From assembly GCA_027577415.1 (NCBI GenBank), contig JANBQS010000751.1, positions 1 to 12,555 of the forward strand: 12,555 nt of DNA, written 5' to 3'. Below, piece by piece: positions 1,336 to 11,781 of this stretch (position 1 is the first letter of the stretch; each line of letters begins with the position of its first letter). The notes beneath the pieces were generated by a model. It was not told where the DNA came from, did no database searches, and worked only from the letters and a program-made list of their open reading frames with translations. The DNA comes from Coemansia sp. RSA 922 (lineage: Eukaryota; Kickxellomycota; Kickxellomycetes; Kickxellales; Kickxellaceae). A program made the position numbers and the translations under genes.

Positions 1336-1628
1336 TGTCACTTCGTTTTTACCTTAAAATACTCAACTGTACAGCATTAACCTCATTAAAACTTAAATGG
1401 CTCATGTGCCAATATCTACATACTCATTGTTAACATATAGTTGAATCAGTGGATTTGCCGCAATCTATGTTGGTAATTACATCTAAATGCTACCTTGGCT
1501 TGCGTAATCGTTACCTCTCGTCCGCAGTTCTTGCTTTCTTTGTTTCCCAACTTTTCTCCTCCCTTTTTAAAGTCAAATATCCTTCTATTCGCTTTTGTTT
1601 TACGACAGCTTATTCGACAGAACAGAAA
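1336..1628 (+). promoter_or_regulatory. Intergenic: 3' end of first gene and pyrimidine-rich leader of the FunK1-like gene
   Basis: This 293-bp gap must hold the terminator of the upstream gene and the promoter of the next. From about 1515 to 1600 it is rich in C and T on the + strand, including a run of cttttctcctccctttt, typical of fungal leaders. No clear TATA box is seen. The frame of the downstream gene stays open through this stretch back to an ATG at 1467, discussed with that gene. Confidence 0.45.
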
Positions 1629-3806
1629 ATGAACTCACAAGCTAGCCCGGCGACAAGCATGCAACCACTGCAACCGGCCAACGTCATACCCGGCGAAAAG
1701 CTTGACTTTGGTACCTTGGGTGTTCGTGATGAGAGCCTCACAGCTCTAATAACAGATAGTTTGCGCCCTAACTGCGAGGCTGTCAACAAGATAGCCGCTC
1801 CCCGCTCTACAGTGGTTTGCACAATGGCAGGCGAACTTGTCAATGAGGTTACCGCCGATCTAGAGGCACGCCTGCTGAGGGTGGATCGTATAAATCGCAA
1901 ATCTGCGGAGTCTCTGGATGCTTGGGCGATGGACATAGTTGGCTGGACTGGCCATTGCGACTCAGATCCCGGTCAGCTGAGAGATTACGATATTGTCGAA
2001 TGTTTTGAATCATTCCTCTTGTTTGTCGCACACCATGCCAAGGCTTACTTTGGCAAGCAGATCGCTGCCGGGTTACTCGAGTCTGAGGGCTGCCGACTGA
2101 TATTGCCTATTACATGTATGAAGGAGGAACCCGAGTCCTTTGATTTTTACGGGACTGATTGTAACTACCCTAATACCTCCGAGTGCGGGATGTTTCCGCT
2201 GGACAGCAGCGTGGAGAACCACACGACGCCCGCTCCTCTCCGTGTCGTGGCTGTTGTGGAGGTAGGAGAGTCCCATGAAGAGCTATTCCACGAAATGCAA
2301 AGATTGGCCGTAAGGACGACGAGGGTATATGCTAACCAGCACAACCGCCGGTTTGCCTGGGGACTGACTGTCACTGGTAGCTATATTCACGCATACGTTT
2401 TTGGGCCCGATGTTCTCTGGACATCGAATGAGATTAATATGGCCAGCGCCAGCGGTCGCCATGAGTTTATCTCGCTGCTTGTAGACTGGTCGCTGTGTTC
2501 CGTCGACGGTCTTGGATTTGACCCGAGCATGCGATATGTCCTTGACGACAATGTTGGCGGTCCTTACTTGGAGATTGATATCCACGAGATGGATGAGAAT
2601 GCGAGCCATGTGAATAAGCACACGTACTACAGCAAGAGGTGCGTTGGAGCAGCCACCGATCTGATTGGCTGTCACCCCAGATACTTTGCTGCCTCCACTG
2701 GTCTCGAGTCAATGGACCGCCCCTCAGTTTTAATCAAGGACGTGTGGATGCCCTCGGAGAGCGACTCTGCCGATAACAGGAGCTCGATTCTTGATCTACA
2801 CGCTGCGCTTGAGGGAACTGGTGAGCTCGAGGGCAAAATTTCGCAGATCGTGAGTGCTGGATCCGTGTACCTTTGCCAAGGGGGTACTTTTGTTAAGGAT
2901 ACGACGGCCTCTGCCTTTCCCGATCTTGCGACCGCTTCGCTGCATATATCCGGCAGCCAGTTCCGCCAGCACAAGCGCACGGTGACGAGGTGGGGTGGGA
3001 ACGTGATTTCTGTGGCAAGCGACCCAAACCAAGTCGTTGTTGCAATCGCCGACGCAATGGCAGCACACAATGCGGCGTATGTCAAGTGCAAGATCCTTCA
3101 TGGCAACATTAGCAATCGAGCCATTCTGTTCCAAGAGACCGCCAATGGCGTAACCGGAGTTCTGGCGGACTTTGACTATGCTGCTCCTGTCAGCGATGCT
3201 GGTACTGCTAAAATTAAATCGCCGGAGCACGTGTTGTTTCAGTCTATCCGTAGACTGGAGAACGCCGAGACACCCTGTACTCGCCTGGATGACTGGGAGT
3301 CCTTGCTGTATGTTATTTGTGTCGTGGGCGCTATTGGATTTAGCCAGATGGAGAGAGATGAGTTTGCTGCGGGTAGATCGGGCCGCCGCTACATCAAGTC
3401 GTGGAACTCACATCGTGCGCTAAAAGCCTCTAGAGAGAGGTGCCGCGAAATGAGCAAGCCACTCTTTTATAATTTCCTCCACGACAACATCCGCCATATG
3501 CCATTGCATCGACTAGCGATGGACATTCTCGAGTCTCTGTTCCATCACGAGTGGTGCTCTGAAGAGCAGTCGCGCGAATATGCGCTCAACGATATTACTT
3601 TGCGCGATACCATTGAGGACGAGATTGTGGCGAAGCTTTTGAGCATTGTGGAACGTCACAAACAAGAGGCACTCGCAGCGCTAGGTGATAAGGAATCCAC
3701 TACCGCTGTTGTAGCTGAAGAGAGCGATGGTCCTCTAAGGAAGCGTAATCGTGACGAGACCCCTGCGACTTCGCCCATGGCGACGCGATCAAAGGCAAGG
3801 CTCTAG
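1629..3806 (+). CDS. FunK1-type fungal protein kinase-like protein, probable pseudokinase
   Basis: The 725-residue protein fits the fungal-specific FunK1 family (Pfam Pkinase_fungal). Seen in sequence: a beta-3-like VLIKDVW segment with the ATP-lysine position at K370; a catalytic-loop equivalent HGNISNRAILF at 491-501; a DFD at 514-516 followed by YA; then LDDWESLLYVICVVGAIGF, matching the family's 'DDxESLxYVL' helix. The C-terminus is basic (RKRNRDE and TRSKARL), as often in this family, and may direct nuclear import. Known family members carry HRDIS..NI in the catalytic loop. Here the Asp is Asn493 and the downstream metal-binding Asn is Ala498, so phosphotransfer is doubtful although K370 and D514 remain. 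I chose ATG 1629 (context gaaaATG, A at -3). An in-frame ATG at 1467 would add 54 residues of hydrophobic/basic sequence that looks like translated leader. Family assignment is confident; biological role unknown. Confidence 0.85.
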   Translation: MNSQASPATSMQPLQPANVIPGEKLDFGTLGVRDESLTALITDSLRPNCEAVNKIAAPRSTVVCTMAGELVNEVTADLEARLLRVDRINRKSAESLDAWAMDIVGWTGHCDSDPGQLRDYDIVECFESFLLFVAHHAKAYFGKQIAAGLLESEGCRLILPITCMKEEPESFDFYGTDCNYPNTSECGMFPLDSSVENHTTPAPLRVVAVVEVGESHEELFHEMQRLAVRTTRVYANQHNRRFAWGLTVTGSYIHAYVFGPDVLWTSNEINMASASGRHEFISLLVDWSLCSVDGLGFDPSMRYVLDDNVGGPYLEIDIHEMDENASHVNKHTYYSKRCVGAATDLIGCHPRYFAASTGLESMDRPSVLIKDVWMPSESDSADNRSSILDLHAALEGTGELEGKISQIVSAGSVYLCQGGTFVKDTTASAFPDLATASLHISGSQFRQHKRTVTRWGGNVISVASDPNQVVVAIADAMAAHNAAYVKCKILHGNISNRAILFQETANGVTGVLADFDYAAPVSDAGTAKIKSPEHVLFQSIRRLENAETPCTRLDDWESLLYVICVVGAIGFSQMERDEFAAGRSGRRYIKSWNSHRALKASRERCREMSKPLFYNFLHDNIRHMPLHRLAMDILESLFHHEWCSEEQSREYALNDITLRDTIEDEIVAKLLSIVERHKQEALAALGDKESTTAVVAEESDGPLRKRNRDETPATSPMATRSKARL

Positions 3807-4189: not shown

Positions 4190-5014
4190 ATGGCGAGTTC
4201 TAGAAACAGCGAAGAAATGGACAATGATTTTAACTTGTTCCAAGAGCCAGAAGACTACTACCCACCCGAGCCCGAAGACAAGGTCGAGGTATTCGAGCGC
4301 AACCCCGAATGGGTAACAGCAGGCACGCCATCGCAAATTACGGTCAACCTCTTAGGCGCGCATCCGCTGTGGGGTCATTATCTGTGGAATGCGGCCAAGG
4401 TGTTTGCCAACTACCTCGACGAGCGCAAACACATTGTGCAAGGAAAATCCGTACTGGAGCTAGGTGCTGCCGGTGCACTTCCCTCGCTTGTGTCTGCATG
4501 TAATGGAGCCAGTCGGGTAGTCATTACCGATTACCCTGACCACGATCTTGTTGAGAACATTAGGAAGAACGTAAATGCCAACGTACCTGCTGATAAAATC
4601 GCTGAGGGACTGGTGACTGTGGAGGGATTCAAGTGGGGGTATGATATTGAGAAAATCGCAAAGCTGAGTACGCAGAATGGAGCCTTTGATGTCCTGATTT
4701 TGTCCGACTTGGTGTTTAACCACTCGGAACACTCGGCTTTACTTCGCTCCGTCGATCGGCTCATGGCTAAACCGCGGGCGGATGGAAATGGTGGTGGTGA
4801 GGCATATGTGTTTTTCACTCATCATCGCCCGTGGTTGGCAGACAAGGATATGGACTTTTTGACTCGTGCTCATAACGAGTTGGGTCTCACTGTCACTAGG
4901 CTGGTAGAAGACTATACAGGTGCGATGTTTGACTCGGATCCTGGAGATGAGCGTGTACGTGGAACTGTTCACGGTTTCTGTCTGACATCTCCTCCATCAT
5001 CGCTTCAAAGTTGA
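4190..5014 (+). CDS. EFM7: EFM7/NNT1-type protein N-terminal and lysine methyltransferase (eEF1A)
   Basis: The 274-residue protein matches the yeast Efm7 (Nnt1) family of seven-beta-strand, SAM-dependent methyltransferases, close to the roughly 260-residue yeast length. In yeast Efm7 methylates the N-terminal glycine and adjacent lysine of eEF1A in the cytosol. Seen here: an N-terminal FQEPEDYYPPEP segment typical of the family; the HPLWGHYLWNAAK signature at 58-70; SAM-binding motif I VLELGAAGALPS at 88-99; the acidic post-I site TDYPD at 113-117; and the motif LSDLVFNHSEH at 171-181. The C-terminal part with GDERVRGTVHGF closes the fold as expected. The frame opens earlier at a TTG (4151), but the first ATG is 4190, with G at -3 and G at +4. 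All motifs are intact, so an active enzyme is expected. The substrate is inferred from the family, not visible here. Confidence 0.9.
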   Translation: MASSRNSEEMDNDFNLFQEPEDYYPPEPEDKVEVFERNPEWVTAGTPSQITVNLLGAHPLWGHYLWNAAKVFANYLDERKHIVQGKSVLELGAAGALPSLVSACNGASRVVITDYPDHDLVENIRKNVNANVPADKIAEGLVTVEGFKWGYDIEKIAKLSTQNGAFDVLILSDLVFNHSEHSALLRSVDRLMAKPRADGNGGGEAYVFFTHHRPWLADKDMDFLTRAHNELGLTVTRLVEDYTGAMFDSDPGDERVRGTVHGFCLTSPPSSLQS

Positions 5015-5239: not shown

Positions 5240-5595
5240 AGTGGGCTTTTGTAATAGCACCTAAACAACACATAACCAACACGAAAGTACACCACTTTGG
5301 AAACAATGTACGGCAATTCGTTCACCTCTGTTCTTTGTTTCAAAGGAAACACGTCAGTTGGGTAATGCCTCTGTCTCTTTGCTGTGCGCCAAAGAAGAAG
5401 AAAAAGATAGGGAAGAATAGTGCGCAGGTTGGCGCGCTTTCAGACAAATGCCTGCTCTCCAAAGTCTCAACACCAATGCAAAAGGGTGGTTGGGTGCCTT
5501 TTTAGAGGCTAAGCCTTAGTTGCTGCTACTCCTTTCTGCTTGCCAAAGAAACGGTTGGGGGAAGCAGAGCGCAAACTTCACCTTGTCTGGCTATC
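5240..5595 (+). repeat. Degenerate ~150-bp upstream modules of small-gene copy 1
   Basis: The stretch holds diverged repeat modules. One runs from about 5240 to 5385 and includes acgaaagtacaccactttgg. A second starts at about 5386 with gcgccaaagaagaag and includes ctccaaagtctcaacacc. A partial third begins at about 5540 with ttgccaaagaaac. The same landmarks recur upstream of copy 3: acgaaagcactccattttgg at 7071 and ctccaaagtctccaca near 7238. Boundaries are approximate because alignment was by eye. No protein is encoded. They may be duplicated regulatory DNA carried along when the gene cassette was copied. Confidence 0.6.
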
Positions 5596-5742
5596 CCTTC
5601 AGTGAGAAAATGCACTGCCCTTTCTCTGCTATATAAACCAAGCAAATTATGCCTCCACTTTTATTTTCAAAACATTCACAACACCCACTTTTCTCTGCCA
5701 ATTATAATAATTGACCGCCTGCTTCAAATAATACTTGTAAAA
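5596..5742 (+). promoter_or_regulatory. Core promoter and 5' leader of small-gene copy 1
   Basis: A TATA box (tataaa, 5632-5637) lies 111 bp before the ATG. An inverted repeat CAGTG-N8-CACTG (5600-5604 and 5613-5617) lies just upstream. The leader shares with copies 2 and 3 the landmarks ttttcaaaacat, ctctgccaatt and attgacc. This is the most diverged of the three promoters but aligns along its whole length. Confidence 0.75.
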
Positions 5743-6069
5743 ATGGTGCGTATTGTCTATGTTGGTTATAGTACGGATCACTTTGTAGTTAATAGTTATG
5801 ATCCGCTGCCTGACCCATCTCATATAGCCGAAATTGAGAAGGAATTGACAGCTACCCTCAAGCCGGGCTATAATGTCATAGTCATTGAGAAGACCAAGTT
5901 CACGCACATTGATGAAACTACAGTGACTAAATATGATACAGATAAAGCAGGTAATATCTTTATATTCTGTGGACTTGATGCAGATCTTAAGCAATTGGAG
6001 GCGTATGCCAATGATATAGGGCACGATAAATGTTATAATGCTCTCATATACTTGGCAAAAAATATATAA
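5743..6069 (+). CDS. Small orphan protein, family copy 1 (108 aa)
   Basis: I do not recognise this family. The ATG at 5743 (context taaaaATG) follows the conserved TATA and leader at the spacing seen in the sister copies, and that decides the start although the frame is open back to 5602. The protein begins MVRIVYVGY and shows alternating hydrophobic beta-like segments and helices: a strand at 2-8, a helix around 27-38, a strand YNVIVIEK, a TVTKYDTD turn, a strand NIFIFCG at 71-77, an acidic helix DADLKQLEAYAND, and a C-terminal ALIYLAK. The KT..V.KYD.D..N-hydrophobic-G pattern aligns with copy 3 (AKT..., VAYNDVDNFYMIMG), so the two are homologous though weakly similar. There is no signal peptide or membrane helix, so it is probably cytosolic. 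Codons are AT-rich compared with neighbouring housekeeping genes. Function unknown. Confidence 0.75.
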   Translation: MVRIVYVGYSTDHFVVNSYDPLPDPSHIAEIEKELTATLKPGYNVIVIEKTKFTHIDETTVTKYDTDKAGNIFIFCGLDADLKQLEAYANDIGHDKCYNALIYLAKNI

Positions 6070-6196
6070 GCTATTATCAAGTGCAGACTTGGATGGTCAG
6101 GTCAACATTTGTCTGTCTCAGTCGTAGCACTGTGATATCAACAGTCAACGATCCGAGGCGATGAGTTTAGTTTTGTCTTCTAGTGTTTATACACTC

Positions 6197-6354
6197 GTCT
6201 GCCCATCCTTGCATTAAGTGGTGATGCCACCTTTTTTGCTATAAAACTACACTGCTTCTGCCTCTATTTTTGTTTTCAAAACATCCATAACACGCACTTT
6301 TTCTCTGCCAATTGTATCTTTTGACCAATTGCTACTACTACTAGTGTTTTCAAG
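6197..6354 (+). promoter_or_regulatory. Core promoter and 5' leader of small-gene copy 2
   Basis: TATAAAA (6240-6246) lies 115 bp upstream of ATG 6355. The stretch aagtggtgatgccacc (6216-6231) is 24 bp before the TATA box, exactly as in copy 3. The leader repeats ttttcaaaacatcca, ctctgccaatt and ttgacca. By eye roughly four in five positions match copy 3 from here to the ATG. Unlike the other copies, no upstream modules were found in the short gap after copy 1. Confidence 0.8.
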
Positions 6355-6762
6355 ATGTCAAAATATATCTATGTTGTCATTGAAGAAGGCAAGCTTGCCT
6401 ATAAGAGTGATATTATTAGATTTTAGAGCGGAGTGAACTAGCGTAGCTTATAAAATCTTAAGTGTCAATAAATTAAATATTGGAAAGGTTAAAGAAAAGA
6501 AAAAAGATGTTAACCGGTCAAACACGCACTATATCCAAAGTGCCAAACAAACCAGTGAACCGTGGGAACTGGACTGAGCCAAGTCAAGTCATATGACAAT
6601 GGTACTGAGATCCAAAAGAGATATTTAACAGATATAATATCTTATACCAAGGGGGGTGTAGCCAGTCGTAAGGAAGCTTTATGTAATTCGGTTGGTGCGG
6701 GTAAAGGATATTGCTATTTTGTCTTTGGAGAAACAACATGGAGACCCATTAAGGAGGTAACT
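6355..6762 (+). pseudogene. Decayed small-gene family member (copy 2)
   Basis: From ATG 6355 only 23 codons can be read (MSKYIYVVIEEGKLAYKSDI...) before TAG at 6424-6426. Family similarity then continues in other frames. ILERSELA (from 6420) resembles LIERSFDS of copy 3. SVNKLNIGKVKEKKKDVNR (6461-6517) resembles FINKVLEKKGKNKDVNR. HYIQSAKQT follows where copy 3 has KYMFIIAKT. VKSYDNGTE (about 6583-6609) and YCYFVFGE (about 6709-6732) match later family motifs. About 100 bp more separates these last motifs than in copy 3. Several frameshifts with a good promoter suggest a recently silenced gene. A 40-nt GT...AG interval (6407-6446) would join two of the frames, so a spliced gene cannot be excluded, but later breaks remain. 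The 3' limit is approximate. Confidence 0.6.
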
Positions 6763-7014
6763 TGCCAGGTCTTGGTCTCTCTTAGCCTTGGATTAATGGG
6801 TCGCCAAGCCTTTGTAGGTGGAGGCAGAGGTGTCTGTGTGAGGGTTGCTTGCCCAAATTGGGAGGCCAGTAGACCCGAGTGTGCCCTTTTCGGGGGTACC
6901 AGTTTGTAGTAGCAATTCATATGAGCTGCCACCCAATTTGAATATTAATGCAAATTATTATATTTAAAAAAGCATGTTAATTAAATTTACATTTTTTCCT
7001 GTGAACTAGTTGGT
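6763..7014. other. Spacer after copy 2; nothing recognised
   Basis: The reading frame carrying the last copy 2 remnants stays open to 6909, but the sequence after about 6762 is Gly/Val-rich and matches neither sister copy. The remainder is AT-rich. No RNA gene or repeat was recognised. Confidence 0.4.
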
Positions 7015-7491
7015 TGCCAGAGAAAATAAAACAGGGGGAGGGGAATGGGTGCACACAATAATTTGCATCCACGAAAGCACTCCATTTTGGAAAGGGCACA
7101 TCAGCAGACACCAGCTCTCTTTTGAAACAAAGGAAGCACAATAAACAAAAGAAATTTTTTTTTGCTTTTCAGTAAAGAATAATAAGGGGAGAGAGTTGTA
7201 CAATTTGTTGCTTTTGAAGAGGGGGGAAACACATGATCTCCAAAGTCTCCACAGCATTGAAGAGTACTTGGGCGTCCTTTGGGGCTAAGAGTAGCAATTA
7301 TTGCCGTTGATTGCCAGAGGAGAAAGTGGGGAGGAAAGTGCACAGTTTGTCGCTTTCGCAGCTGAATACGTCATTCTCAAAGCCTCAACTATTGCACATT
7401 GCATGGACAACCTTTGAGGCAAAGGGCTGTGCTTGTCGATGACGCTTGATGCTTGCCAAAAAAGTGGGGATAGGAAGGCAGCATTTTTTTT
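7015..7491 (+). repeat. Degenerate ~145-bp upstream modules of small-gene copy 3
   Basis: Successive modules begin at about 7015 (ttgccagagaaaataaaa), 7158 (diverged start), 7308 (ttgccagaggagaaagtg) and 7452 (cttgccaaaaaagtgggg, partial), a period near 145 bp. Shared internal marks are the A/G-rich start, a tttgttgcttttg or tttgtcgctttcg element, ctc(c)aaag(t/c)ctc, and ccttt-g-gg-(c)taag or ccttt-gaggcaaag. The set parallels the one upstream of copy 1 but contains about one more module. Copies are diverged and limits were judged by eye. Confidence 0.6.
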
Positions 7492-7756
7492 GCCTGTGTA
7501 GGATCGACACATCGCATCGGCGAGCGATCCCACATTTCGATCACGTGACTGATCTATCGCCCAACGGGGCGATCCTTAATGTTGACGACTAGCGCTACTG
7601 CGCCATGACCTTGGTTATTAAGGAACCGCGCACGGAACACCGGCTTAGGTTTCAATCAATCACTTCTTATATCTTTATTATTTACTTAATACGAGACATT
7701 AGAACGGTGACTTAGGCTGACGCCAAATAAGCTAGATACTACACATCTACAGCCTG
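7492..7756. mobile_element. Solo LTR (7497-7751) with 5-bp target duplication GCCTG
   Basis: The 255-bp element starts TGTAGGATCG and ends CATCTACA. Its TGTAG and CTACA ends are perfect inverted repeats with the TG...CA termini of LTR retrotransposons. The identical pentamer gcctg flanks it at 7492-7496 and 7752-7756, the 5-bp duplication expected of integrase. There is no internal gag-pol sequence, so this is a solo LTR left by recombination. Removing the element and one duplication leaves ttgcctggctctccttgc, which aligns with ttgtctggctatcccttc (5583-5600) in copy 1 and tcgtctgcccatccttgc (6195-6212) in copy 2, supporting the insertion model. It contains a TCACGTGA palindrome (7541-7548) and inverted AGGATCG/CGATCCT segments (7500-7506, 7570-7576). 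Superfamily and orientation are not determined. Confidence 0.85.
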
Positions 7757-7908
7757 GCTCTCCTTGCAGCAAGTGGGGATGCCACCTTTCCTGCTATAAA
7801 ACTAAGCTGCTGCTGCCTCTACTTTTATTTTCAGAACATCCACAACATACTTTCTCTTTACCAATTACTTTTATTGACCAACTACTCTAGTTATTAGTGC
7901 TTACAAAC
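7757..7908 (+). promoter_or_regulatory. Core promoter and 5' leader of small-gene copy 3
   Basis: TATAAAA (7795-7801) lies 114 bp before ATG 7909. aagtggggatgccacc (7771-7786) contains GTGG-N5-CCAC and matches copy 2 in sequence and position. The leader repeats ttttcagaacatccacaac and ttgacca. The solo LTR ends 43 bp upstream of the TATA box, separating this core from the upstream modules. Confidence 0.8.
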
Positions 7909-8268
7909 ATGCCAAGAGTCATGTTTTTTGTTGAGAATGGCAGGTCTAAGGCTGCATGTCTTATTGAACGAAGTTTTGATAGTCCGGATATTGCAGGATT
8001 TATCAATAAAGTATTAGAGAAGAAGGGCAAGAATAAAGATGTGAACAGAGGAAAATATATGTTCATTATTGCAAAAACTGGGTTGGTACTCATTAATAAC
8101 TCAGTAGATAAGATTGTAGCATACAATGATGTCGATAATTTTTACATGATCATGGGAAACGAAGAAGAGATAGTGGACATGGAGAAACACATAGAGAGTG
8201 TAACGTATAAAAACTATTTAGAGGAAATAAAAGGATTGGCAAATGCCTTTGCCAGTCCTTCTTCGTAG
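7909..8268 (+). CDS. Small orphan protein, family copy 3 (119 aa)
   Basis: This is the longest intact member of the unrecognised family. ATG 7909 is set by the conserved TATA-leader spacing; a GTG twelve bases upstream is in frame but unlikely as a start. The protein opens MPRVMFFVENG (strand), then a helix with FINKVLEKKGKNKDVNR, a strand KYMFIIAKTG, VLINNSVDKIVAYND, a strand NFYMIMG at 77-83, an acidic helix EEEIVDMEKHIES, and a C-terminal tail KGLANAFASPSS absent from copy 1. Charge is mixed. No signal peptide, membrane segment, cysteine pattern or known catalytic motif is seen. It is AT-rich in codon use compared with RIO1 downstream. The retained frame despite an LTR in its promoter suggests selection or recent insertion. 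Function unknown; homology to copy 1 rests on pattern and shared promoter. Confidence 0.8.
   Translation: MPRVMFFVENGRSKAACLIERSFDSPDIAGFINKVLEKKGKNKDVNRGKYMFIIAKTGLVLINNSVDKIVAYNDVDNFYMIMGNEEEIVDMEKHIESVTYKNYLEEIKGLANAFASPSS
8231..8260 (+). other. 13-bp hairpin at the 3' end of copy 3
   Basis: Arms at 8231-8243 (aaggattggcaaa) and 8248-8260 (tttgccagtcctt) pair over 13 positions, with one G-U wobble in RNA and a four-base TGCC loop. It lies inside the coding sequence, ending five bases before the stop codon, and encodes most of the tail not found in copy 1. Confidence 0.7.
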
Positions 8269-8645: not shown

Positions 8646-10520
8646 ATGTCCTTGTCGCAAACGCCCACGGCTGACAGTACGCCCGTCGTCGAGGAGGAAC
8701 AGTACGCACAGGTTGGGAATACCGGCAGCGAGGACAGCGAGATATATTCTGAAGACGACTATGATTCAGAAGAGGCTGAGGTCGAGGCCGACGATCTGCT
8801 GGGACATATTGAGAACTGGGGCGAGAACGGGTGCGACTTTACCAAGCAGTATAACCGCATGCGGCAGCAAGCAGTCGTACTCCAGAGCAACGGCAAGCCC
8901 ACCGCTGCGTCTAGCGCCCAAGCCAGAAAGGCCATTATAGACACGGTCGCTGGTGGAACTGGCGCCAACAGTAAGCCCAGTATCAATGGCAGTGGGACGC
9001 TGAAAAGCGTTGACTTGAACAAGTACTCTAGCCGCATTAAGCTTGACGAGTTTGTTGGACAGCCTAGCAAAGAGAGCGTCAGCCTCGGTGGCAGCCGCAA
9101 AGCACAGGGAGCATTGACTGCGCAGCGCAAGGATAAGGCGGATCGTGCTACGACAGAGCAAGTACTGGACCCGCGGACGCGCATTATATTGTTCAAGCTG
9201 CTCAACCAAGGCATAGTGTACGAGGTGCATGGATGCATTAGTACTGGCAAGGAGGCTAACGTGTATCACGCGGTGACGGAGAGCGGCGAGCACCGAGCGA
9301 TCAAAATTTACAAGACGTCGATTCTGATCTTCAAGGACCGCGATCGCTATGTGTCAGGCGAGTACCGGTTCCGTCACGGATACTCGAGACACAATCCGCG
9401 CAAGATGGTTAGACTGTGGGCCGAAAAGGAAATGCGCAACTTGAAGCGACTCAACGCGGCTGGCATCCCCTCGCCCAGCCCTGTTATCTTGCGGCAGCAC
9501 GTGTTGGTTATGGAGTTTTTGGGTACTCCCGAAGGATGGGCTTACCCTAGGCTCAAGGACGCTGTGATCCCTGCCAACCGGTTCCCGGCGCTGTACTACC
9601 AGCTAGTGCGCGACATGCGAGTAATGTATGCGGTGTGTAAGCTAGTTCACGCGGATCTGAGCGAGTACAATATTTTGTACCATGGCAAGCGCTTGTACAT
9701 TATCGACGTGTCTCAGTCGGTGGAGCACGATCACCCGCACGCCCTCGATTTCTTGCGGCACGACTGTAACAACGTGACAGAGTTTTTCCGTAAGCGCGGC
9801 AATGTGCGGACCATGTCTCTGCGGCGGCTGTTTGAGTTCATCACGGATCCGGCGGCCGGAAGCTCGAGTGACGATATAGATCAGGCGCTGGAGGTCATTC
9901 AAGAGGAAATGGAGCATGTGTTGGACGAGGAGCTGTTGAAGCTTCGGGCTGACGATGAGGTGTTTAGGCAGTCGTATATTCCGAGAACTTTGGATGAGGT
10001 CGAGGACTATGTACGCGATGTAATCAAGATCAATGACGGAAAGACCGATGAGCTTATCTACAACAAGCTTGTCGGTTTGAGCCTGTCCACGGCCAATGTC
10101 CCTGATGGCGACGACAGCCAAAAGCCCGCGGGCGTTGTGGCCAATCCTGTTCAGGAGAAGGAAAAGTCTAAAAAATCTGCTGGTGTGCGCTTCGCCGAGG
10201 AGCCAGCGTCGGCAGCAAAGGCACTGTCTATTCAAGATACAACTGAGCAGCAAGTATCCCAAATGGCGGCGCTTCTTAAGGGGGACAGCGCCGATGGTGC
10301 CGATGTTCCTACTGCTGAGGGCGATGCAGAGGAGTCTAGCGACGAGGATGATAGCGATGATGACAGTCAAGACGAGTCAAAGGGCCGGAAGAACGAGACC
10401 AAGGAGGAGAAGCGCGAGCGGAAGCAGGCAGTCAAGGAAGCCATGCGCGAGCGGCGCAAGACAAAGATGCCCAAGGCAGTCAAGAAGCGCAAGGTGCGTT
10501 CTTCTAACGGCAAAAAGTAA
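8646..10520 (+). CDS. RIO1: RIO1 atypical serine/threonine kinase/ATPase
   Basis: RIO1 acts in late cytoplasmic maturation of the 40S ribosomal subunit, where ATP hydrolysis drives its release from pre-40S; yeast Rio1 also has nuclear roles. The 624-residue protein carries the full RIO1 signature: ATP-loop STGKEANVYHA at 199-209, ATP lysine K220 in AIKIYKT, the RIO1-type flexible loop after it (SILIFKDRDRYVSGEYRFRH), hinge VMEFLG, catalytic loop HADLSEYNILY at 335-345 with D337 and N342, and metal-site IDVSQ with D354, followed by VEHDHPHALDFL. The N-terminus is acidic. The C-terminus has an Asp/Glu/Ser tract (EESSDEDDSDDDS) followed by a Lys/Arg-rich tail, as in RIO1 orthologues, although the whole is longer than yeast Rio1 (484 aa). 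No intron or break is seen. ATG 8646 has A at -3. Confidence 0.97.
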   Translation: MSLSQTPTADSTPVVEEEQYAQVGNTGSEDSEIYSEDDYDSEEAEVEADDLLGHIENWGENGCDFTKQYNRMRQQAVVLQSNGKPTAASSAQARKAIIDTVAGGTGANSKPSINGSGTLKSVDLNKYSSRIKLDEFVGQPSKESVSLGGSRKAQGALTAQRKDKADRATTEQVLDPRTRIILFKLLNQGIVYEVHGCISTGKEANVYHAVTESGEHRAIKIYKTSILIFKDRDRYVSGEYRFRHGYSRHNPRKMVRLWAEKEMRNLKRLNAAGIPSPSPVILRQHVLVMEFLGTPEGWAYPRLKDAVIPANRFPALYYQLVRDMRVMYAVCKLVHADLSEYNILYHGKRLYIIDVSQSVEHDHPHALDFLRHDCNNVTEFFRKRGNVRTMSLRRLFEFITDPAAGSSSDDIDQALEVIQEEMEHVLDEELLKLRADDEVFRQSYIPRTLDEVEDYVRDVIKINDGKTDELIYNKLVGLSLSTANVPDGDDSQKPAGVVANPVQEKEKSKKSAGVRFAEEPASAAKALSIQDTTEQQVSQMAALLKGDSADGADVPTAEGDAEESSDEDDSDDDSQDESKGRKNETKEEKRERKQAVKEAMRERRKTKMPKAVKKRKVRSSNGKK

Positions 10521-10662: not shown

Positions 10663-11781
10663 ATGTTGGCTGCTTTGCGAAAGAGGTTGCCGTCTCGTAA
10701 TACGGCGCTATTCTGGGGCAGTGTATTCAGCGTAGTAGGATTTTATAAATACAACAGTAACGAGAGCAAAAAGCGGCTAGCGTTCTACTGCAAGCAGGCA
10801 GAGGCTGTGGCTAATGAGCCGATGGGAGCACTGGACACACCACGCAAGGTGCAAGTGTATATTGCGGCACCGATGGGAGAGCTAGGCACGCGAAAGGCGC
10901 GACTGCACTGGGAAAAGTACATTCTGCCCGTGTTTGTAGCCGGAGCCTTGGACTACGAACTGACACTGGTGAACGACACAGAGACGATCAACGATGTGGA
11001 AAAGGTCGTGCGGGGCGGAGTACACAGTCGGGTTGCAGAGGAGATCAAGGAGCAGAGACGCAAGGCGCTGGAGCTAGAGGAGGGCAATGAGGAGCTGAAG
11101 CTGTGGCGGCAGGCGATCGTCGAGAGAAAGAAGGACAACGAGGCTAGGGAGATTATGAATCGCATTGGTCGCGCGCCTGGAGAGGCTAATGTCAGTTCGT
11201 GGAAGCCTGAGCCGTACCCTGGCGTCATGGACGTCGTGGCTGTTGGCCGCGAGACCTGGGTCGAAGTCATTAATGGGCTGAGCGAGGGCGCCACTGAGTC
11301 GCTCAACTACAGCGTGCCACCTTTGGTGCCGCTCGACTCGGAGGCGAGGGCGCAGCAGGAAGAGAACCGTGCTATCAGCACATCGGACGCTGCGGTGATT
11401 GACACGGCTGGGACGGTGGCCCCATCGGCTCCTGCAGAGGTAGTGGCGCCTCAGGTGGTGGACTATGACCGGTTTGACAGTAAGCGCAGAGTGGGGCTGC
11501 CGGCCGCGGCGTATATTGCGCACTACAACCTCACGGGCTGGGGCAGCCTGCCATTGCGCATATGGCACTTCTTCCATGACCAGGAGAACGTCGACTTGTA
11601 CGCGCGCCAGGCCCTGCAGGTTGTGTTTGAGTCTACGCGGCGTCCGGCACGCGACGCCCAAGAGGTCATCGACATGGGCAGGGACGAAGAAACACAGCCG
11701 GTCTGGGAGGGCCAGAGCTTGGATGTGGTTGTGGATCCGGCCGTGGCTGCATCGCTGGATATCTACGATACGCAAGCATAG
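10663..11781 (+). CDS. TIM54: TIM54-type subunit of the mitochondrial TIM22 inner-membrane translocase
   Basis: Tim54 is a fungal subunit of the TIM22 complex, which inserts carrier proteins into the mitochondrial inner membrane; it has one N-terminal membrane segment and a large intermembrane-space domain. The 372-residue protein starts MLAALRKRLPSRNTALFWGS, with the family's basic PSRN segment and a membrane stretch at about residues 14-29. There follow a conserved Lys/Arg-rich KKRLAFYCKQAE region, PRKVQVYIAAPMGE (60-73), and YILPVFVAGALDYEL, all placed as in Tim54. A charged coiled-coil-like region lies around 125-165. Near the C-terminus HYNLTGWGSLPLRIWHFF (287-304) and VDLYARQALQVVFE match the family's end. 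It is shorter than yeast Tim54 (478 aa) but has both conserved ends. There are no introns. Confidence 0.88.
   Translation: MLAALRKRLPSRNTALFWGSVFSVVGFYKYNSNESKKRLAFYCKQAEAVANEPMGALDTPRKVQVYIAAPMGELGTRKARLHWEKYILPVFVAGALDYELTLVNDTETINDVEKVVRGGVHSRVAEEIKEQRRKALELEEGNEELKLWRQAIVERKKDNEAREIMNRIGRAPGEANVSSWKPEPYPGVMDVVAVGRETWVEVINGLSEGATESLNYSVPPLVPLDSEARAQQEENRAISTSDAAVIDTAGTVAPSAPAEVVAPQVVDYDRFDSKRRVGLPAAAYIAHYNLTGWGSLPLRIWHFFHDQENVDLYARQALQVVFESTRRPARDAQEVIDMGRDEETQPVWEGQSLDVVVDPAVAASLDIYDTQA

What the first reader, a model, noticed from the sequence alone, without database searches (positions are those of the whole stretch)
5596..8268. Small-gene family with conserved promoter/leader but strongly diverged proteins
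Three cassettes (ATGs at 5743, 6355, 7909) share an alignable block from about 50 bp upstream of TATA to the ATG, with TATA-ATG spacings of 111, 115 and 114 bp. Yet the proteins MVRIVYVGY..., MSKYIYVVIE... and MPRVMFFVEN... retain only a faint common pattern. Genes usually diverge the other way round. This is what is seen in families under diversifying selection (recognition, competition or conflict functions) or where promoters are homogenised by gene conversion. I recognise no known family. The predicted beta/alpha pattern and absent signal peptide point to a cytosolic protein.
Basis: partly seen in the sequence, partly recalled or inferred. Interest (0 to 1): 0.75.

Follow-up and report, generated by a model that had tools for sequence, protein, structure and literature searches.

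The report
Hypervariable fungal gene family, constant promoter
A Coemansia-like fungus carries about fifty small, unannotated genes that share one promoter and leader but encode fast-changing proteins, so that genes in matching places of two contigs can be barely alike, which is how recognition or conflict genes often look.

Summary
The 180 bp before one cassette's ATG find 33 places in this genome; all 33 precede a frame of one new protein family. Among 741 pairs of 39 cassettes the leader beats shuffles in 593, the coding sequence in 232. Leaders are depleted of ATG (3 seen, 33.7 expected). Two subclades show positive selection, two other pairs purifying selection; at least six copies are broken or shortened. 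Contigs C494 and C73 match at both ends and through housekeeping genes (95-98%), yet their cassettes encode proteins only 24% identical; whether they are alleles or duplicates is open. No known family matches; a low-confidence model suggests a beta-grasp-like fold. Best reading: a repertoire of intracellular recognition or conflict proteins, expressed from a common promoter and diversified by selection, birth and death, and cassette replacement. The exact function (allorecognition, anti-parasite defence, selfish element) is not shown. The window's copy 2 is a 23-codon remnant.

The parts
5577..5742 (+). Promoter and leader of copy 1; TATA-type box starts at 5630
   Evidence: matches leaders of other cassettes
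5743..6069 (+). Copy 1, intact family member, 108 aa
   Evidence: 18 matches listed at E<=10 in the own genome with this protein, itself included, the weakest ones not significant alone; 68% identical relative in Coemansia sp. RSA 2531; AlphaFold2 model pLDDT 69
6206..6354 (+). Promoter and leader of copy 2; TATA-type box starts at 6240
   Evidence: 79% to the copy 3 leader, E 2.4e-27
6355..6426 (+). Copy 2, truncated remnant, frame ends after 23 codons
   Evidence: sequence; length list
7497..7751 (.). Solo-LTR-like insertion (255 bp, TGTAG...CTACA ends, 5-bp target duplication GCCTG) just upstream of the copy 3 leader
   Evidence: an 80% identical copy lies beside cassette C3a
7752..7908 (+). 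Promoter and leader of copy 3; TATA-type box starts at 7795
   Evidence: 91% and 90% identical to leaders of C3a and C529a
7909..8268 (+). Copy 3, intact family member, 119 aa
   Evidence: A1 profile score 80 bits (it is itself a row of A1); model pLDDT 55 with a similar strand/helix order

Best explanation
This is a lineage-specific repertoire of small intracellular recognition or conflict proteins in a Kickxellales-like fungus. Each gene is a cassette with one uninterrupted frame: a shared promoter with TATA-type box, a shared leader of roughly 85 nt after it, then about 95-154 codons. The common promoter keeps the repertoire under one expression programme (inferred). The proteins appear to keep a common order of strands and helices (two low-confidence models), while residues change under positive selection in at least two subclades, and whole cassettes are replaced at fixed chromosomal places, probably by recombination through shared flanks (the pattern is shown, the mechanism inferred). 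Such a combination is expected when a protein must differ from, or track, a moving partner: nonself versions in fused hyphae (allorecognition), or a virus, plasmid or other parasite. I put allorecognition slightly ahead because divergence can be extreme between apparent alleles at one place; that last step is inference.
For: Leader linked to the family: 33 of 33 places (30; C118, C619, C128:24648); 14 of the 30 were not in the profile and all scored. ATG depletion in 44 leaders, 3 seen against 33.7 +/- 4.5. Positive selection in two of two subclades tested by site models and pairwise dN/dS 2.56 [1.44-5.63] for C54c/C402. Purifying selection in C497/C103 (p 0.003) and C44a/C20 (p 0.03) shows real coding genes. 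Cassette replacement: C494/C73 flanks 96% identical on both sides (935 and 836 bp aligned), coding bins 37-55%, protein 24%; C513/C892b upstream 85-100% and about 90 bp downstream 93-100%, coding 42-57% (C513 is a short frame); C328b/C755c upstream 97.8%, protein 42%. C494 and C755 match C73 and C328 at both contig ends (95.5-97.8%), with Prenyltrans (BET2-like) and PAT1 genes at 98%, as alleles would. Broken or shortened copies: C750b, C118, C643, C513, C419, C559. Apart from the window's own protein, three database searches found one relative, in Coemansia sp. RSA 2531.
Against: No expression data, no phenotype, no partner identified. Allele versus segmental duplication is not settled: the RIO1-Tim54 block of the window is found once, one of the two C497 ends and the one C88 end tested found no match at the predicted place, a stretch about 6.5 kb from the C73 cassette is only 81% identical to C494, and paired contigs range from 81% to 98%. 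In four pairs fitted alone none is significantly above 1 and two are significantly below. Recombination between cassettes can inflate site-model tests, and the site models are my own code. The protein search reaches only near relatives, so the restriction to Kickxellales may be overstated.
Confidence: 0.5

Rival explanations
1. Intracellular defence proteins against mycoviruses, plasmids or mobile elements: each cassette binds or blocks a parasite protein, and the arms race drives divergence; no self/nonself role.
For: Same evidence of positive selection, copy-number change and broken copies; small single-domain proteins with a possible beta-grasp fold.
Against: No parasite target known; whole cassettes differing between near-identical flanks is more typical of balanced recognition loci, but does not exclude this.
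Confidence: 0.25
2. Ordinary expanded housekeeping or stress family with a shared regulon promoter; divergence is mostly relaxed constraint, and leader likeness comes from gene conversion and promoter constraint.
For: Leader distance is below dS in 19 of 22 near pairs (pairs not independent); most of these pairs have dN/dS intervals that include 1; shortened copies are common.
Against: M2a beats M1a in two of two subclades and neutral simulations do not reproduce the first (0 of 60); purifying selection in C497/C103 and C44a/C20. That intact frames persist is weak evidence, since frames were part of how members were found.
Confidence: 0.15
3. A selfish or drive-like family (as wtf in fission yeast, recalled): cassettes spread because they harm cells or spores without them, with exchange among copies keeping flanks alike.
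For: Dispersed copies, local clusters (C246 four, C54 three, C755 three, C750 three), mosaic copies and decay.
Against: No membrane-spanning or paired poison/antidote design was noticed (by eye only); one frame per cassette; sexual cycle of Coemansia hardly known (recalled).
Confidence: 0.1

Closest known systems
Fungal heterokaryon-incompatibility (het) genes, e.g. of Aspergillus fumigatus (PMC11138114, abstract and passages seen)
   Same: [quoted passage not shown] an absence allele is also reported there.
   Different: Those loci were mapped by genetics and three were confirmed by expression; here there are about fifty small homologous genes, no phenotype, another fungal phylum, and no known domain found.
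Podospora hnwd family (PMC2873952, search listing only)
   Same: Multi-copy nonself-recognition family that diversifies quickly.
   Different: Diversity there lies in WD repeats of large proteins (size recalled); here in one small domain.
Trypanosome VSG cassettes and fission-yeast wtf drivers (recalled)
   Same: Constant flanks around variable coding cassettes; recombination among copies.
   Different: VSGs are surface proteins and wtf proteins sit in membranes (recalled); here no signal peptide is evident by eye and cassettes carry their own promoter-like block.
Beta-grasp / ubiquitin-like domains (UBX, PB1, SUMO, DIX)
   Different: No sequence match; no Foldseek match at E<=0.001; model confidence low; extra C-terminal helices.

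Membership tests
Heterokaryon-incompatibility / allorecognition genes | Highly diverged alleles at one locus with narrow footprint | tested here: inconclusive
   C494/C73 and C328b/C755c show the pattern, but alleles are not separated from segmental duplicates
Heterokaryon-incompatibility / allorecognition genes | Diversifying selection on the protein | tested here: met
   two of two subclades by site models; pairwise, one of 22 near pairs has an interval wholly above 1
Heterokaryon-incompatibility / allorecognition genes | Cell death or rejection on fusion of unlike strains | not testable with these tools
   needs genetics in the fungus
Heterokaryon-incompatibility / allorecognition genes | Known HET, NACHT or similar domain | tested here: not met
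   42 members scanned against Pfam: six families, each matched by one member at E 0.016 or weaker, none of them HET or NACHT; many het genes lack these domains too (recalled)
Beta-grasp (ubiquitin-like) fold | beta-beta-alpha-beta-beta(-beta) sheet grasping a helix | tested here: inconclusive
   [not shown]
Crinkler-type N-terminal domain (recalled as ubiquitin-like) | Match to the family profile | tested here: inconclusive
   not among matches at E<=0.1 for 42 members; I did not check that such a profile is in the library
wtf-type meiotic drivers | Poison and antidote from one gene, segregation distortion | not testable with these tools
   no crosses; one frame per cassette seen

The most novel reading that the evidence does not exclude
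An early-diverging fungal lineage has its own nonself-recognition system: a battery of about fifty tiny single-domain proteins, driven by one shared promoter-leader, whose specificities are swapped as whole cassettes at fixed housekeeping loci, so that two haplotypes of one strain carry different sets.
Probability: 0.27. Interest if true: 0.88.

Novelty: new variant of a known kind. Interest (0 to 1): 0.68.

Why it matters
Fungal allorecognition and intracellular defence are worked out almost only in Ascomycota and Basidiomycota (recalled; in the main text of the one review checked, the words Zoopagomycota and Kickxell- do not occur). A hypervariable family whose members can be pulled out by one 180-bp leader gives a ready entry: cassettes can be collected from other Coemansia genomes, compared between strains and tested. 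It is also a clear case where regulatory DNA stays alignable after the protein has diverged, the reverse of the usual order.

Tried and rejected
Dispersed non-coding repeat: rejected, 33 of 33 leader places precede a family frame; three more places that are not in that list (C672a, C3a and the window's copy 2) also do, copy 2 only as a remnant. Structured RNA leader: no Rfam match at gathering score in the window; RNAalifold gave no fold for 44 leaders, but its column-shuffled control was also zero, so that test is weak. My own first idea of a longin/profilin fold, from the order of elements: the structure lists hold mostly beta-grasp-like chains; longin is not listed, which does not exclude it. 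Shared 3' UTR: seen by eye between some copies, but over all pairs the first 100 bp after the stop are at shuffle level (50.9 against 50.5%), so I do not claim it. My first identity count used a gap-lenient score with a shuffled control of 73% and was replaced. Domain and sequence searches in Pfam, NCBIfam and PDB gave no significant match; PADLOC and PHROGs were not searched. The tandem family at C73 about 21.5-25 kb is not a member by profile (about 2 bits). Papers: searches listed no title or abstract start describing this family; that covers open-licence PMC only, and I opened two papers (passages).

Full report
What the window is. The window (G000:C750, 12,555 bp of a 20.4-Mb, 960-contig genome) is fungal: a Pkinase_fungal protein (1626-3806), a Methyltransf_16 protein (4190-5014), RIO1 (8646-10520) and Tim54 (10663-11781) are recognised by Pfam. 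The only relative of copy 1 found besides the window's own sequence is a partial protein of Coemansia sp. RSA 2531 (68% identity over 81%; Kickxellales), so I take the genome to be a Coemansia or close kin; this is inference from one hit.

The observation. The three cassettes are as described, except that copy 2 is a remnant of 23 codons. Copies 1 and 3 are intact.

Collecting the family. The leader of copy 1 finds 8 places and that of copy 3 finds 10, each including itself and the other window copies. The 180 bases before the ATG of a third cassette (C54) find 33 places, itself included (the tool calls such counts lower bounds). Thirty of these were cut out, and in all thirty the longest ATG frame starting between 30 bp before and about 230 bp after the match end scores against a profile of 30 members (A1), the weakest at 13 bits for a 64-aa frame; 16 of the 30 were in A1 and 14 were not. 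Of the other three, C118 is a family frame with an early stop, C619 is in A1, and C128:24648 was unknown until read: it carries a 127-aa frame with a 'NVFIFFGS' stretch, 13.7 bits against 7.6 for the best of 200 shuffles. So 33 of 33, of which C118, C513, C419 and C559 are broken or shortened. Protein searches add members, some without a clear leader (C386; C643, whose leader is lost beyond -71). By my tally 49 cassettes were read and four more are listed only (two on C111, one on C20, and a weak one on C239).

Leader against protein. In 741 pairs of 39 cassettes, leader identity over 120 bp exceeds the 97.5% point of shuffles in 593, coding DNA in 232, protein in 224. A strict TATA[AT]A lies 85-135 bp before the ATG in 26 of 33 cassettes; with a wider pattern 41 of 44 have one, median 113 bp, range 88-125. 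The last 85 bases of 44 leaders hold 3 ATGs, two of them in C755b whose start has shifted, where 33.7 +/- 4.5 are expected. That is what a transcribed, scanned 5' UTR of a protein-coding gene should look like.

Selection. Pairwise dN/dS among 22 near pairs runs from 0.17 to 2.56; the bootstrap interval excludes 1 upward only for C54c/C402 (2.56, 1.44-5.63) and downward for C497/C103 and C44a/C20. My own implementation of site models gives, for six sequences (C328a, C755b, C54c, C672a, C809, C402; 129 codons), omega 1.61 overall (p 0.012 against 1) and M2a over M1a by 2dL 16.3 (p 3e-4, 31% of sites at omega 3.5); 60 data sets simulated under M1a reach at most 10.2. Five sequences of a second subclade (C73, C619, C328b, C755c, C54b) have omega 0.91 overall and give 2dL 22.1 (p 2e-5, 12% of sites at omega 7.4), not simulated. 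Four pairs fitted alone have omega 0.20, 0.39, 0.47 and 1.41; only the first two differ significantly from 1. Recombination can inflate such tests.

Mosaic cassettes. Segments of one cassette have different nearest relatives. C54c/C809 leaders are 98.3% identical although upstream is 63-69% and coding DNA 75%; C809/C402 are 99-100% alike from -360 to -120 and 83% in the coding part, with the drop near the ATG. C494/C73 are 92-100% alike per 60-bp bin from -1620 to -780 and 85-100% from +480 on, 67-70% in the leader and 37-55% in the coding part; over the outer flanks 96%. C513/C892b behave likewise over the shorter flanks held, though C513 is a short frame. C128/C294 share a right flank at 90% (627 bp) with proteins 31% identical. 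In 19 of 22 near pairs the leader has diverged less than synonymous sites, in 3 more. I read this as promoter/leader constraint plus occasional exchange.

Alleles or duplicates. C494 (16.7 kb) matches C73 at its first 800 bases (97.8%) and last 840 (95.5%), and C755 (12.5 kb) matches C328 at its start (95.6% over 1,178) and last 880 (96.3%). Nearby lie genes that are normally single: a Prenyltrans (BET2-like by recall) and PAT1 pair at 98% over 3,061 bp, a helicase frame with AAA_11/AAA_12 domains (SEN1-like by recall) beside C73 and a Sec63-domain frame (Brr2-like by recall) beside C328. A 1.5-kb stretch about 6.5 kb from the C73 cassette is 81%. Further ends tested: C870/C172 both match (94.8 and 85.9%), C809/C402 the one tested matches (97.8%), C497/C103 one of two (92.8%), C672/C137 the one tested matches (94.1%), C88/C3 the one tested does not. 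The RIO1-Tim54 block of the window occurs once, but every contig I saw is over 10 kb, so short second-haplotype contigs may be missing from the copy held (inference). I judge two haplotypes likelier than duplications, at about 65:35. On that reading one locus carries C328b and C328a in one haplotype and C755c, C755a and C755b in the other.

Comparison with known systems. [quoted passage not shown] The C494/C73 pattern has the same shape. Membership is not shown: no phenotype, no known domain.

Verdict. The feature is real, matches no family in the libraries searched, and is of a kind that often marks recognition or conflict. The mechanism (which partner, which outcome) is inferred, not shown.

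Noticed in passing
7497-7751: A 255-bp solo-LTR-like element with TG...CA ends and a GCCTG target duplication sits directly upstream of the copy 3 leader and splits its upstream region; an 80% copy lies next to cassette C3a (L004).
   Followed up: partly
L086 (C73:22000-23499), with C494:12477-15896, C683, C739, C838: A second tandem family of small frames (e.g. 151 aa, MHHFFLLTMSVDADF...) that also differs between C73 and C494 (81% where another gene pair is 98%); not related to the leader family by profile.
   Followed up: partly
5743-6069 and 7909-8268: Cassette genes are A+T-rich (35-38% G+C) against 50-60% for the other genes of the window.
   Followed up: no
L004 and L040: Frames resembling DDE transposases of mariner/IS630 type (DNARPH...PDL.PCDF) lie beside cassettes C3a and C137; by eye only.
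   Followed up: no
6900-7490 and 5270-5600: Upstream of the window cassettes lie several diverged copies of a block around TTGCCAAAG, GGGAGGAAAGTGCAC and CTCAAAGCCTCAAC, possibly a regulatory repeat or remnants of older cassettes; by eye only.
   Followed up: no
L016/L017 and L035/L039: Other small frames (MVTIRIYMSEGGEDG..., MFKLPTKSVYHCNG...) lie near cassettes C88/C3b and C297/C643 in both copies of each pair.
   Followed up: no
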